Assembly (NCBI RefSeq): GCF_005405285.1
Contig: NZ_BJDT01000011.1
Span: forward strand, 1 to 46,424
Length of the DNA stretch: 46,424 nucleotides
Reading direction: 5' to 3'
DNA from: Weissella sagaensis
GTDB taxonomy: Bacteria > Bacillota > Bacilli > Lactobacillales > Lactobacillaceae
Each line of letters begins with the position of its first letter. The first letter of the stretch is position 1. The position numbers and the translations under genes are program-made. The notes under the pieces are model-generated. The model was not told the DNA's origin, did no database searches, and saw nothing but the letters and a program-made list of their open reading frames with translations. Below, one piece after another: positions 1,498 to 28,805 of the stretch.

Positions 1498-1571
1498 AGT
1501 AAACAAAAACGCTTGTTAATATATATGCACCTACACTTCTAGCTTGCCGGCGGGAGTGTGCATGTTTTTTG
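1498..1571 (+). ncRNA. Candidate small RNA between int and the AbiF-like gene
   Basis: Downstream of the possible extended -10 is a 70-75 nt stretch with no convincing reading frame. It ends in a hairpin (ATGCAC 1525-1530 with GTGCAT 1558-1563, plus inner ACT/AGT pairs) followed by T6 (1565-1570). This is terminator-like on the plus strand, convergent with the leftward abi gene that ends at 1572. The transcript would be antisense to any abi readthrough RNA. An AACAAAAACGCTTGTT element lies near its 5' end. Expression and function are unproven. Confidence 0.35.
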
Positions 1572-2558
1572 TTAGAGAAGATAGTCTTTATAATGCTGAG
1601 GAAAATTCATGTCGTTCAAAATTGAGTTGAACGAAATTGATGTGAATTCTTTGGAATAGTCATCTAATAGTTCGATTATTCTCTTTGACAAACGCTTAAA
1701 GTCCTTTTTTTCGAGTACAACATGTAGAGAAAGTATTAGTTCAAAAACACCGGATTTAGTTGGAAATGAGTAGTCAATCCCCAAACTTTGCTTTATTTCT
1801 CCAATCGTAGAAGGCTTTTTTATTTTCTTTGAAAATGTAACCTCATCATGAGCAACAGAATTCCTGAAAATGTTTACCAAATGATTTATGGTGTCTAAGG
1901 CATCCGGTCGAATTCCATGCGTGAAACTCTCGTTACCATATGATCGACGCTGTGTTTTTTTAAAATCCTTAGCGATTATCAATCGTAAGTCGTCTGGAAT
2001 TATGCGGTAAAAATAGTTATAATCACCAAAACTAAGGTAGTTAACAAGAACCCACAGAGGGACATGACCATGGTTTTTTACATAGTGTTTTATAGCCGTA
2101 TCTTTTGTTGATTGTTTTTTAATCGTATTTGATAGGTTGCTGATTGTCGTTACAATATTTCTCATCGTTTCAGCATTAGAAGTAGGACGGTAATTGTCAA
2201 TTGCAAGGTAAGAGTGTTCTGCTTGATTTTTTTCGGAAAAACGATAAGCAAGGGTAGCACTAAGCGTTGATTCATAACGTAGCAAGGCTTCAAATAAAAT
2301 TGCTCTAAGTTCACGGTCAAAATCGTATAGTGCTTTAATTTCTAAAAAATTTGCACCTTGCACAAATTGCTCTGGACGAACAACATCACCAGTAGATGTT
2401 CGTTGCAAAAAGGACCATTTGTAGCCGTTTATTATAGCGTAGTAACCGTAGTGTTCTAGTGCACGTAATGCAGGACTTCCATTTGGAATATTGAGACCTC
2501 GTTCACGTAAGATGTTTAATTGTTGGCGATGTGTTTTAAAAGGTTTGTTGTTTGCCAT
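1572..2558 (-). CDS. Abi_2 family (AbiD/AbiF-like) abortive infection HEPN protein
   Basis: This 328-aa protein belongs to the Abi_2 family. Family features are the N-terminal LxxRGL..A...L...GYY.INGYK block, the middle DRELRAILFEALLRYES helix, the PLWVLVNYLSFGDYNYFY segment, and an R-x4-H HEPN motif RNSVAH at residues 232-237. HEPN proteins of this type are RNases, so it probably cleaves RNA to stop phage growth. The start MANNKPF at 2558 is set by GGAGGT ending six bases upstream. A longer in-frame extension (to 2648) would run back through a structured RNA and its terminator, so I reject it. The gene sits in the cargo arm, behind its own promoter and a small RNA (2576-2659), an arrangement like RNA-antitoxin systems. 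AbiD and AbiF cannot be told apart with certainty here. Confidence 0.9.
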   Translation of the reverse strand: MANNKPFKTHRQQLNILRERGLNIPNGSPALRALEHYGYYAIINGYKWSFLQRTSTGDVVRPEQFVQGANFLEIKALYDFDRELRAILFEALLRYESTLSATLAYRFSEKNQAEHSYLAIDNYRPTSNAETMRNIVTTISNLSNTIKKQSTKDTAIKHYVKNHGHVPLWVLVNYLSFGDYNYFYRIIPDDLRLIIAKDFKKTQRRSYGNESFTHGIRPDALDTINHLVNIFRNSVAHDEVTFSKKIKKPSTIGEIKQSLGIDYSFPTKSGVFELILSLHVVLEKKDFKRLSKRIIELLDDYSKEFTSISFNSILNDMNFPQHYKDYLL

Positions 2559-2575
2559 TGCGTACCTCCGAGTAC

Positions 2576-2659
2576 AAAAAAAGCTAGTCCATGTTTTCAC
2601 AAAGACTAGCAAATTGGTAGTTCGGAACCTACTCCCAGGGCCCTCCAAACTTGATCTAT
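2576..2659 (-). ncRNA. Candidate RNA antitoxin preceding the AbiF-like gene
   Basis: On the minus strand a strong promoter (2666-2694) should start an RNA near 2659. It contains a GGGCCC palindrome (2638-2643), a small GTAG/CTAC hairpin (2617-2620 with 2629-2632), possible TTGG/CCAA closing pairs (2645-2648 with 2614-2617), and a final GCTAGTC...GACTAGC hairpin followed by seven U (2610 down to 2576). The terminator stops 17 bases before the abi start codon, so abi expression would depend on readthrough. AbiF genes have been reported to be stably associated with a conserved noncoding RNA acting as antitoxin. Position, size and layout match, but no homology search was possible. Confidence 0.75.
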
Positions 2660-2665
2660 GTGATA

Positions 2666-2694
2666 AATATATATTAACATTGCTTTTTTGTCAA
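2666..2694 (-). promoter_or_regulatory. Promoter of the AbiF-associated RNA
   Basis: On the minus strand a perfect -35 TTGACA (2694-2689) is separated by exactly 17 bp from -10 TATATT (2671-2666). This is the best sigma-A-type promoter in the left arm, and it fires toward the small RNA and the abi gene. Confidence 0.85.
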
Positions 2695-2726
2695 TTCTAA
2701 CGTTCGGGTGTGAATGTTAGAATTGA
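2691..2726. repeat. 15-bp inverted repeat overlapping the abi -35, candidate operator
   Basis: Arms TCAATTCTAACGTTC (2691-2705) and GAATGTTAGAATTGA (2712-2726) are complementary except at one position and are separated by 6 bp. The inner arm covers the first four bases of the -35 TTGACA on the minus strand. A protein bound here could block or stimulate the abi promoter. Further AACGTT motifs lie at 2819-2824 and 2833-2838. Confidence 0.55.
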
Positions 2727-2994
2727 GGTAAAAAAGAATTATAAATTCAAGATTCCTGTTTTAACTAGTTAAAAACGAATTAAAAATAATTATAAAAGAT
2801 AAAATTTACCGATTTCTTAACGTTAGTAACGCAACGTTATATATTAAAATTTTGAATTTTTCTGAAAGCCCGACATATATATCAAAGAAATTAATGACCA
2901 TAAATGTTGCATATTAATTTACCAACATTTTGTCTATCCCTCATTCAAAACGGGTGGCTTTTTTACATGTCCCACAGAGCAGGATACGCGTGTT
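2727..2994. other. AT-rich intergenic stretch without a gene
   Basis: No reading frame here is convincing. It contains a perfect 16-bp palindrome TTTTAACTAGTTAAAA (2759-2774), a 7-bp inverted repeat TAACGTT/AACGTTA (2818-2824, 2833-2839), and a GGGTGGCTTTTTTA segment (2952-2965) that is identical to the tail of a terminator at 4481-4494. It probably marks a cassette boundary between abi and the exonuclease gene. Confidence 0.5.
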
Positions 2995-4005
2995 TTATTT
3001 ATTTATTGTTTCAGCAACCATTTTTAAAAACTCCTCATCTGAAATAATAGAAATTTCAGATTTTCCTTGTTTATTAAAAGATTCAGCTTTAATTTGTTTT
3101 GATGACTTATTATCTTCTTTGGTGTTGTTTTGGTAAGAACCAACAACTAATAAATCAGTATCAGTTCTAACATTTTTTTGTGGTGTAGCTCCTAAATTGG
3201 CTATAAATTCATGAGCATCATTTCTTGTAAATTTTTCTAAAGTACCTGTAAAAACGACATTTAGACCATAAAATGAATTTGTTTCATCTGCATCTAGATT
3301 AGCGTTAAATGTTTTATACTCGTATTTATTATTATTATGAGTACCATGTTGAACGGACCAGTCATCACCTAATTTTTCTCTTTCTAAATCGAAAATTTGT
3401 TTTTCGAACAATGAATCATTTAAAGCGCGATGAGTGTGATTAAAACCATCCTCATTAGATAAATTGTATTTTTTAATAAAATCAATAACTCGATGTCTAT
3501 TCATTTCAGGACTTTTAAATGCATAGAAGTGCCCTAAATTATATGTGTCAATATAGTTATTTTTAAATTCAATATCAAATTCTTCTAATATTTCATCATA
3601 AATAAAATTAATATCAAAAGATGCTCTATGTGCCACTATGATAGAATCGCTAACGAAGTCTAAAAACTCTTCTAACACATTTGATTTAGAGTGACCAAAG
3701 TTATTAATTTCATCATTTGAAATTCCTGTTAATTCACTAGTGAAACTGGGTAAATCATAATTATCAGGGAAACATGGATTAATGAGTTTATCAAACGTAT
3801 CCACAATTTCATTATTAATCACTTTAACTGCGCCAATTTCAATTATGGCTCCCCATTCAGGTGATAAGTCAGTTGTTTCTATATCAATGACCGTGTAATC
3901 TTTTGGAAAGAAATGTTTTAATTTTCCCTTATTTCTTATCTTGACTTTCTTAGAGGCAGTAGTAACACTAGAAGATATATTAAAGCCAAATTCTATTCCA
4001 AACAT
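2995..4005 (-). CDS. DnaQ-like 3'-5' exonuclease with C-terminal BRCT domain
   Basis: This 336-aa protein has an N-terminal DEDDh exonuclease domain. Its active-site residues are visible: D41 and E43 in VIDIETTD, D131 in AHRASFD, and H192 with D197 in THRALND. Residues about 246-336 form a BRCT domain (LNVVFTGTLEKFTR, then LVVG). DnaQ-like exonucleases of this build resemble the epsilon subunit of DNA polymerase III and are found as accessory repair or proofreading nucleases. Start MFGIEF has GGGGA eight bases upstream. It lies in the cargo arm beside a broken DNA-repair glycosylase gene. Its role in the phage is unknown; DNA repair or defence are both possible. Confidence 0.88.
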   Translation of the reverse strand: MFGIEFGFNISSSVTTASKKVKIRNKGKLKHFFPKDYTVIDIETTDLSPEWGAIIEIGAVKVINNEIVDTFDKLINPCFPDNYDLPSFTSELTGISNDEINNFGHSKSNVLEEFLDFVSDSIIVAHRASFDINFIYDEILEEFDIEFKNNYIDTYNLGHFYAFKSPEMNRHRVIDFIKKYNLSNEDGFNHTHRALNDSLFEKQIFDLEREKLGDDWSVQHGTHNNNKYEYKTFNANLDADETNSFYGLNVVFTGTLEKFTRNDAHEFIANLGATPQKNVRTDTDLLVVGSYQNNTKEDNKSSKQIKAESFNKQGKSEISIISDEEFLKMVAETINK

Positions 4006-7815: not shown

Positions 7816-8107
7816 AGGCATCCACAGCACTATCTAGTGCATCTGACCAATTATTAAAATCGGATTGATTATTGATGGCATGGTCCATGGCATCGTCTGA
7901 AATATCATCAATATCAGAATTGAAATTATTGAAATCTAAAAACTCAATAAAAGTTTTTTGCTGAAAATTATGTTTTTGCATAAATTCTGGTGTAAAGAAT
8001 TCAGATGCTTTATGTTCACCTAAAACTTGCTGAATTGCTTCTAGGTGAGCAAGAACATCATCAAATCCTGATGTTTCAACATTAAAATTAATAAAATTGT
8101 CGCTCAT
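7790..8107 (-). CDS. Acidic hypothetical protein, reverse-oriented cargo gene
   Basis: This is a 105-aa, strongly acidic protein rich in Asp, Asn and Phe, with no domain I recognise. It reads against the early operon. It has its own AAAGGAG site, an extended -10 promoter (TGCTATAAT, 8170-8162) and its own terminator (7717-7760). That self-contained layout is typical of genes expressed in the lysogen. The acidic, small nature would fit a DNA-mimic or inhibitor, but that is speculation. Confidence 0.7.
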   Translation of the reverse strand: MSDNFINFNVETSGFDDVLAHLEAIQQVLGEHKASEFFTPEFMQKHNFQQKTFIEFLDFNNFNSDIDDISDDAMDHAINNQSDFNNWSDALDSAVDAFIERAQKL

Positions 8108-8141
8108 GAGTTAGTTGCTCCTTTCGTCAATGTAGAGAGAA

Positions 8142-8170
8142 TTGCGACACTCACAAATTAAATTATAGCA
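8142..8170. promoter_or_regulatory. Opposed promoters between reverse gene and antirepressor
   Basis: On the minus strand TGCTATAAT (8170-8162) is an extended -10 for the gene at 7790-8107. On the plus strand TTGCGA (8142-8147) and TATAGC (8164-8169), 16 bp apart, could start the antirepressor operon. The -10 elements overlap, so the two transcripts would interfere. The leftward element is the stronger. Confidence 0.5.
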
Positions 8171-15583: not shown

Positions 15584-15660
15584 AGTTCGCTATTAGTTCG
15601 CATAAAGCGCGCATTTACCGCGCATTTGTCAGCCACATAGCGCGCACTAATCGTTATATT
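15584..15660 (+). promoter_or_regulatory. Array of 11-bp repeats, candidate ArpU-dependent late promoter
   Basis: Six to seven consecutive 11-bp blocks share the form AGnnCGCAnnn, starting at 15584: AGTTCGCTATT, AGTTCGCATAA, AGCGCGCATTT, ACCGCGCATTT, a diverged GTCAGCCACAT, then AGCGCGCACTA. CGCGCA cores at 15608, 15619 and 15641 are exactly 11 and 22 bp apart. A -10-like TATATT (15655-15660) follows without a recognisable -35, as expected for an activator-dependent promoter. It precedes the methyltransferase and the late operon. Confidence 0.7.
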
Positions 15661-15726
15661 ATGGTATTGTCGAATAATTGATAAAGAAGACAGCAGTAGG
15701 CTGTGATTACCTGGAGGAATTGAATA

Positions 15727-28749: not shown

Positions 28750-28757
28750 TTTTTCAG

Positions 28758-28805
28758 GCGTTTAAGGTTCGATTCCTTAAGCGCTTTTAGTTTGCAATCG
28801 CAAAC
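28758..28805 (+). terminator. Attenuator-like hairpins after the tail tube gene
   Basis: GCGTTTAAGG (28758-28767) pairs with CCTTAAGCGC (28775-28784), followed by TTTT. A second hairpin GTTTGC/GCAAAC (28790-28805) follows. Strongly expressed capsid and tube genes are often followed by partial terminators that lower expression of distal tail genes. Confidence 0.55.

What the first reader, a model, noticed from the sequence alone, without database searches (positions are those of the whole stretch)
1572..2694. AbiF-like HEPN toxin gene behind a terminator-capped structured RNA: probable RNA-antitoxin system
Seen directly: TTGACA-17 bp-TATATT promoter, a ~84-nt non-coding stretch with a small hairpin, a GGGCCC palindrome and a GCTAGTC hairpin plus U7, then 17 bases later a GGAGG-led Abi_2 gene with an RNSVAH HEPN motif. 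Known: Abi_2/AbiF proteins are HEPN RNases of abortive infection, and recent work on Cas13 ancestry reported AbiF genes stably linked to a noncoding RNA acting as antitoxin. The order promoter-RNA-terminator-toxin is also that of type III (ToxIN) systems. Inference: this prophage carries such a system as lysogen defence. In automatic annotation the RNA is easily lost because a longer in-frame ORF start (2648) runs over it.
Basis: partly seen in the sequence, partly recalled or inferred. Interest (0 to 1): 0.88.

Follow-up and report, generated by a model that had tools for sequence, protein, structure and literature searches.

The report
AbiF toxin, RNA antitoxin, phage decoys
A prophage carries a predicted RNA-cutting toxin gene behind a small conserved RNA that likely keeps the toxin switched off, and look-alike RNAs without the toxin gene sit beside tRNA or tRNA-like sequences in other phages, where they would act as decoy antidotes.

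Summary
In detail: on the minus strand a promoter (2694-2666), a structured RNA, a terminator with U7, then an Abi_2 gene (ATG 2558) with a HEPN motif. Its only PDB fold match with E<=0.001 is 8vz6, the AbiF dimer with its ncRNA. AbiF with an RNA antitoxin is already published, so the kind is known. New here: (1) The RNA is not Rfam's abiF family; it is a separate class with a 7-bp covarying stem (98.5% of cells paired). In 397 Lactobacillaceae genomes it precedes 12 of 12 Abi_2 genes of one clade and 0 of 24 others. (2) 12 of its 24 genomic copies have no Abi_2 gene behind them, yet mostly keep stem and terminator. Some sit behind tRNA or tRNA-like sequences in phages and prophages of lactobacilli, J-1 and PL-1 included. 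The published lytic cyanophage S-CREM1 has an RF03085 abiF RNA between two tRNA genes. None of 12 phage records searched (11 with the new RNA, plus S-CREM1) has an Abi_2 match. Best reading: a type III-like toxin and RNA antitoxin, whose antitoxin some phages likely copy as a decoy. Toxicity, neutralisation and decoy action are untested.

The parts
2666..2694 (-). promoter TTGACA-17-TATATT
   Evidence: 11 of 12 consensus letters; 16 of 17 toxin-linked copies of the RNA have a promoter score of 10 or more just upstream, against 2.6% of 660 random positions with 9 or more
2576..2659 (-). predicted antitoxin RNA, about 84 nt, terminator included
   Evidence: covariance model R1 match 2614-2661, 72.6 bits; fold z -2.8; transcript itself not tested
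2619..2651 (-). 7-bp covarying stem P1 (2651-2645 with 2625-2619) and its loop with GGAGUAGGU (2635-2627)
   Evidence: 98.5% of cells paired over 28 distinct sequences, 4 pairs with changes on both sides; 99.0% in 14 toxin-linked sequences
2576..2610 (-). intrinsic terminator: hairpin 2610-2583 and U7 2582-2576
   Evidence: RNAfold; hairpin with T-run of -10 kcal/mol or better in 16 of 17 toxin-linked copies, 4.7% of 660 random positions
2565..2569 (-). ribosome binding site GGAGG
   Evidence: sequence
1572..2558 (-). Abi_2 / AbiF-family HEPN gene, 328 aa
   Evidence: PF07751 E 1.9e-35; profile match to 8vz6 E 6.6e-34; AlphaFold2 model with Foldseek match to 8vz6 only, E 5.5e-10
1848..1865 (-). 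HEPN motif RNSVAH, R232 to H237
   Evidence: R232, N233, A236, H237 invariant in 37 relatives

Best explanation
The window encodes an AbiF-family (Abi_2) HEPN protein, predicted to be an RNase toxin, behind a conserved one-stem RNA that likely is transcribed from its own promoter, mostly stops at the terminator, and would bind and silence the toxin as a type III-like RNA antitoxin. Shown here: the gene, its HEPN motif and predicted fold; the covarying stem; the order promoter, RNA, terminator, gene in relatives; and the pairing of this RNA class with one toxin clade. Inferred: some read-through makes toxin mRNA; the RNA binds the toxin dimer; infection disturbs the RNA supply and frees the RNase, which stops growth. 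Copies of the RNA without the toxin gene are shown in bacterial and phage genomes; that the phage copies serve as decoy antitoxins, cut out of tRNA-type transcripts, is inferred.
For: Only fold match with E<=0.001 is the AbiF-ncRNA complex 8vz6. Stem paired in 98.5% of cells, 33 cells changed on both sides. 12 of 12 clade members against 0 of 24 other Abi_2 matches have the RNA upstream. The 14 toxin proteins with this RNA form one group in a tree of 50 (95/90). Copies without toxin keep 87 of 89 stem cells paired, which a purely cis-acting leader would not need. RCd22, the RNA of a C. difficile AbiF, neutralises its toxin in cis and in trans (PMC12373285, abstract).
Against: No expression, binding or toxicity data for this locus. 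The RNA does not match RF03085, the class with known antitoxin action. In the covariation counts only three of five measures exceed the shuffles; the number of pairs with a change on both sides is reached by 194 of 500 and the number of pair types by 494 of 500, and related sequences can exceed such shuffles without structure. Two of the 12 toxin genes look broken (G404 internal stop, G551 frame ends near residue 261). In AbiD1, removing the terminator did not change reporter activity and a phage protein acts on translation (PMC2661086, passages), so control may differ.
Confidence: 0.83

Rival explanations
1. The RNA is only a cis-acting attenuator: it lowers expression of the downstream gene by early termination or by hiding the ribosome site and never binds the protein.
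For: The terminator lies between RNA and gene. Premature termination alone lowers abiF expression in C. difficile (PMC12373285, part 1 of section 13), and AbiD1 is controlled at translation (PMC2661086, passages).
Against: 12 of 24 genomic copies have no Abi_2 gene behind them and keep the stem (87 of 89 cells); R2, built only from toxin-linked copies, scores them up to 76.7 bits.
Confidence: 0.1
2. The copies without toxin are relics of lost systems, not decoys: the costly toxin gene decays first and the RNA lingers.
For: L081 keeps a truncated Abi start behind the RNA (by eye). L080 has no terminator and lies beside a transposase gene. Two of 12 paired toxin genes look broken. In the B. velezensis plasmid L037 the toxin gene is split by a transposase gene.
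Against: Several copies score as high as paired ones (L072 76.7, L073 71.0 bits), and 11 of 13 measured keep a terminator. Phage copies recur at one genome position in different phages, which decay does not explain.
Confidence: 0.4
3. The phage RNAs are parts of a tRNA array or late-operon leader (for example its terminator) and resemble the antitoxin by chance or by shared origin only.
For: They lie between a late-regulator-type gene and the packaging or methylase/HNH genes. Scores in named phages are modest (18-36.5 bits), and Lrm1, Lc-Nu and JNU_P9 give no R2 match.
Against: In L075, L084 and L089 the scores are 61.6-63.8 bits over the full motif, too high for chance. S-CREM1, an unrelated lytic phage, has the other abiF RNA class (52.2 bits) also among tRNA genes.
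Confidence: 0.25
4. There is no RNA: 2648-2559 is the coding start of a longer protein.
For: The frame is open from TTG 2648.
Against: Relatives align from the ATG region on; the stem covaries; the stretch is kept where there is no gene behind it.
Confidence: 0.02

Closest known systems
AbiF-Cd / RCd22 of C. difficile phage phi027 (PMC12373285; abstract, sections 6 and 12, part 1 of section 13, passages)
   Same: Prophage-borne Abi_2 HEPN gene; promoter, ncRNA, terminator, toxin gene; RNxxxH motif.
   Different: RCd22 has two RF03085 motifs; here one stem of another class. There the RNA-protein binding and neutralisation are shown by experiment; here not tested. The published gene lies in the lysis module, this one next to the integrase.
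PbAbiF with AbiFr ncRNA, PDB 8vz6 (structure entry; the paper of Zilberzwige-Tal et al. was not held, and is known to me only through PMC12373285 and passages of PMC12737573)
   Same: Fold (TM 0.73/0.80) and sequence profile (E 6.6e-34).
   Different: 18% identity in the structural alignment; the RNA of 8vz6 was not compared here.
AbiD1 of Lactococcus lactis (PMC2661086, passages)
   Same: Same protein group, terminator before the gene, short promoter-proximal transcript (50 b in the supplementary legend).
   Different: Translational activation by a phage protein is the published control; an antitoxin RNA is not described in the passages seen.
ToxIN and phage pseudo-ToxI (PMC3475682, abstract; PMC5449768, passages)
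   Same: Phage-encoded RNA that mimics an RNA antitoxin; the closest precedent for decoys.
   Different: Other toxin family; ToxI is a tandem repeat, here a single motif; PhiTE escape mutants expanded the repeats, here the copies occur in deposited phage genomes.
abiF sRNA of cyanophage S-CREM1 (PMC9964418, passages)
   Same: abiF-type RNA in a phage with no Abi_2 match, among tRNA genes.
   Different: RF03085 class; in the passages seen, the authors report the sRNA as possibly functional in infection but give it no decoy role.

Membership tests
AbiD/AbiF (Abi_2, PF07751) HEPN proteins | Abi_2 domain above the curated cut-off | tested here: met
   123.3 bits, cut-off 25.6
AbiD/AbiF (Abi_2, PF07751) HEPN proteins | RNxxxH HEPN motif | tested here: met
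   RNSVAH, invariant R, N, A, H in 37 relatives
AbiD/AbiF (Abi_2, PF07751) HEPN proteins | AbiF fold | tested here: met
   predicted model matches 8vz6 only at E<=0.001
AbiD/AbiF (Abi_2, PF07751) HEPN proteins | abortive infection of phage | not testable with these tools
   needs plaque assays in a laboratory strain
abiF RNA, Rfam RF03085 | match to the family model | tested here: not met
   no match in 1500-3000 at E<=10, none in 11 class relatives at E<=1, while phiC2 (37.6 bits) and L035 match in the same call
type III toxin-antitoxin system | structured RNA directly upstream of the toxin gene, with a terminator between | tested here: met
type III toxin-antitoxin system | RNA neutralises the toxin by binding it | not testable with these tools
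   needs co-expression and binding assays
type III toxin-antitoxin system | tandem repeats in the antitoxin RNA (ToxI-like) | tested here: not met
   one R1 match only in the window
phage-borne antitoxin mimic (pseudo-ToxI kind) | antitoxin-like RNA in a phage without the toxin gene | tested here: met
   R2 match at E<=0.1 in 8 of 12 phage records, Abi_2 match in 0 of 12
phage-borne antitoxin mimic (pseudo-ToxI kind) | suppresses abortive infection | not testable with these tools
   needs infection of hosts with and without the toxin

The most novel reading that the evidence does not exclude
Phages carry stand-alone AbiF antitoxin RNAs as decoys. The RNA is cut out of tRNA or tRNA-like transcripts by the tRNA-processing enzymes and disarms AbiF toxins during infection. 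It arose at least twice: the new class in phages of lactobacilli (J-1, PL-1, CL1, CL2 and relatives) and the RF03085 class in the lytic cyanophage S-CREM1. Phage tRNA arrays would thus also be armouries of RNA counter-defences.
Probability: 0.45. Interest if true: 0.84.

Novelty: new variant of a known kind. Interest (0 to 1): 0.7.

Why it matters
AbiF proteins are placed near the origin of Cas13 (PMC12165695 and PMC12737573, passages). A second RNA class, tied to its own toxin clade and not recognised by the Rfam model, means that AbiF systems have diverged in their RNA as well, so toxin-RNA specificity can be tested by swapping pairs. The RNAs without toxin give a concrete hypothesis for what some odd tRNA-like sequences and RNAs in phage arrays are for, with ready-made pairs to test in laboratory strains.

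Tried and rejected
Rfam at gathering score: only two tRNAs and a 5S in the window. Sub-threshold hits and those in the phage arrays were judged chance or tRNA-like. A second helix in the loop (CCU/AGG) was counted and not kept: 77.8% of cells paired, no change on both sides. A pseudoknot of GU(U)A with UA(A)C was considered by eye and dropped for want of a linker. blastn of the RNA or the arrays: no match in phages or plasmids; only the weak L082 copy led to named phages. The pattern was too strict (it missed the window's own copy), as was that. Of the 11 stretches, L083, L087 and L088 give no model hit at E<=1. Of the 9 stretches, L046 was already known; the other 8 give no credible model hit. 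L136 (G544, 25.1 bits, E 0.033) looks like a chance hit in coding sequence. My automatic label for a second RNA type caught only 2 rows and is not used. In one search the script's pattern caught 4 copies only; it was widened. Papers: searches showed nothing on AbiF decoys in the listings or passages seen, apart from the S-CREM1 sRNA report; the library is open-licence PMC only.

Rows left out before counts: 7 short or broken ORFs under 230 aa and L037 (no row written), leaving 56; 6 near-copies or truncated rows before the tree (50 left); 5 before the promoter and terminator count (51 left). In one search the script dropped matches with fewer than 5 of 7 stem pairs, so its pair count is biased upwards, and its pattern missed CL1. 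Of the 21 records, 9 were fetched; the rest are listed twins, one unlisted, or records whose match stops before or just at the start of the RNA.

Full report
What is there. On the minus strand, TTGACA-17-TATATT (2694-2666) precedes a predicted RNA of about 84 nt that ends in a hairpin and U7 (2576); 17 bases on, ATG 2558 opens a 328-aa gene with GGAGG before it. The stretch folds as well as or better than 199 of 200 shuffles. The gene lies next to an integrase, beside a 5S rRNA and two tRNAs. The host is likely a Weissella: the nearest named proteins are Abi proteins of W. confusa at 60-61% (120 of 153 hits listed), and G712, of the window's genus, has a 62% relative. This is inference.

The protein. 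PF07751 scores 123.3 bits. R232, N233, A236 and H237 are among 12 invariant positions of 37 relatives. A profile of these relatives hits one PDB sequence at E<=0.01, 8vz6 (PbAbiF), E 6.6e-34. The AlphaFold2 model (33 rows, mean pLDDT 93.6) has a single Foldseek match with E<=0.001, 8vz6, E 5.5e-10. So the gene is an AbiF-family gene. RNase action and toxicity are inferred from AbiF-Cd, whose R202/H207 substitutions abolish toxicity (PMC12373285, section 12).

The RNA is its own class. RF03085 does not match 1500-3000 at E<=10 nor 11 relatives at E<=1, while it does match phiC2 and L035 in the same call. A model from 6 sequences (R1) found 24 places in 22 of 397 Lactobacillaceae genomes, 11 of 40 genera, and none outside that family in a class sample of 299 genomes. 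Over 33 matches (28 distinct) the 7-bp stem is paired in 98.5% of cells, with changes on both sides in 4 pairs and 33 cells. For the percentage, the cells and the covariation score no shuffle of 500 reaches the observed value; for the number of pairs with such a change 194 do, and for pair types 494. Slid pairings give 6-46%. The 14 toxin-linked sequences alone give 99.0%, 4 pairs and 16 cells, with the same pattern of measures.

The RNA goes with one toxin clade. In a family sample of 397 genomes, 36 Abi_2 matches have E<=1e-20. The 12 with at least 46% identity (248 bits or more) all have the RNA directly upstream; the other 24, at 41% or less, have no R1 match next to them (coordinates compared). 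Two of the 12 toxin genes look broken. In a tree of 50 proteins the 14 with this RNA form one group (95/90). A Bacillus velezensis plasmid has the RNA (55.1 bits) before an Abi gene whose N-terminal piece (residues 5-60) and remainder are split by a transposase gene. Other Abi_2 clades have other RNAs in the same place (by eye): a promoter and a hairpin with U-run precede 44 of 51 genes, against 15 of 144 control ORF starts.

Copies without the toxin. Of the 24 genomic copies, 12 have no Abi_2 gene in the 0.9-1.5 kb behind them; two of these are identical copies in one genome. Of the 11 genomes that hold them, 7 have no Abi_2 match at all. These copies, with the viral ones, keep 87 of 89 stem cells paired (13 distinct). 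A model built only from toxin-linked copies (R2) scores them up to 76.7 bits and hits none of 44 loci of other Abi_2 clades or RF03085 type given in the same call. Five copies without a recognisable promoter (L072, L075, L084, L089, L082; scores 5-6) are those behind a tRNA or tRNA-like sequence; five others score 9-10. A hairpin with T-run follows 11 of 13 measured, not L080 and L082. Some look like relics: L081 has a truncated Abi start (by eye).

Phage copies. In a prophage (L075, G681) and the phage L089 the RNA ends a non-coding array between a transcriptional activator (phrog_248) and methylase, HNH or terminase genes; L084 carries the same array, of which 2.1 kb were seen. They score 61.6-63.8 bits. 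Named phages have a like layout: J-1 and PL-1, where the upstream gene is annotated ArpU, and CL1, CL2, Lrm1, Lc-Nu, R24.1, R24.2, where a 429-nt gene without that name holds the place; of JNU_P9 only the stretch from the array on was seen. R2 rings at E<=0.1 in 8 of 12 records: CL1 8.7e-7, PL-1 1.9e-6, J-1 2.0e-6, CL2 1.6e-4, R24.1 0.007, R24.2 0.025, and the two IMG/VR phages; not in Lrm1, Lc-Nu, JNU_P9 or S-CREM1. In the first three of these the motif was found by pattern, with a loop 30 nt longer in Lrm1 and Lc-Nu. In 12 phage or prophage copies the motif starts 13-15 nt after a T-arm-like sequence, in the bacterial copy of G449 20 nt after that of tRNA-Ser; 89 of 91 stem pairs form, a count biased by the script's own threshold. 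CL1 has no terminator. J-1 and PL-1 are nearly identical, so not independent. The lead that opened this path, L082, has E 0.0078 in one of 397 genomes; about four such chance hits would be expected, so alone it means nothing. Its context and the J-1, CL1 and G574 copies make it credible. Most of the tRNA-like units are recognised only with relaxed settings. None of the 12 phage records has an Abi_2 match; a very divergent AbiF, or one on a missing part of an IMG/VR record, is not excluded.

Independent case. The lytic cyanophage S-CREM1 was reported to hold an abiF sRNA (PMC9964418, passages). Its record shows this RF03085 RNA (52.2 bits) between tRNA-Asn and tRNA-Gly, with no Abi_2 match. Two phage groups and two RNA classes thus show a like arrangement.

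Mechanism. Most likely the RNA is made in excess by termination and binds the AbiF dimer, while read-through supplies a little toxin; infection upsets this balance. This follows RCd22 (PMC12373285) and is not tested here. Phage copies would top up the antitoxin, as pseudo-ToxI does for ToxIN (PMC3475682, abstract). Against it: no expression data, modest scores in named phages, and the chance that these RNAs belong to late-operon leaders.

Verdict. A real RNA-toxin pair of a published kind, with an RNA class that Rfam does not recognise, and a testable phage counter-defence hypothesis.

Noticed in passing
L089 about 2100-2350 and L075 about 8000-8150 (minus strand); L125 2225-2520; L082 7650-7900: The phage arrays hold a further structured element (GCYTGCRAYGACCC ... 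GAGC, folds at -13 to -20 kcal/mol) and tRNA acceptor/T-arm-like units; cmscan of the L089 and L075 stretches names no fitting Rfam family. They could be decoys for other defences.
   Followed up: partly
window 1520-1570 (+): A hairpin followed by a T-run on the plus strand between abi and int (CACTTCTAGCTTGCCGGCGGGAGTG); similar stretches lie beside Abi_2 in L016, L017 and L025 (by eye).
   Followed up: no
window 28757-28786 (+): A T-arm-like hairpin (GGTTCGATTCC at 28766-28776) between two prophage genes; the pattern is expected 0.08 times per window by chance, and the only other match is in a real tRNA.
   Followed up: no
window 15655-15675 (+): TATTATGGTATTGTCGAA before the methylase gene resembles the stretch at the head of the RNA arrays in L075 and L089; this prophage has the stretch but no array.
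   Followed up: no
window 2995-4005 (-): A DEDDh exonuclease fused to a BRCT domain lies just upstream of the AbiF pair, maybe another accessory gene of the prophage.
   Followed up: no
L018, L024, L026, L027, L106, L108-L111, upstream of Abi_2: Another Abi_2 clade has its own RNA type with a CUCUACGG-like loop; in some the start codon and ribosome site lie in or right behind the terminator (by eye).
   Followed up: no
L080 8009-8056 and upstream: A weak copy of the RNA (41.6 bits) without terminator lies near a CRISPR-repeat-like sequence and a transposase gene.
   Followed up: no
L060 268-1296: A second, distant Abi_2-like stretch (20% identity) lies just upstream of the RNA-toxin pair.
   Followed up: no
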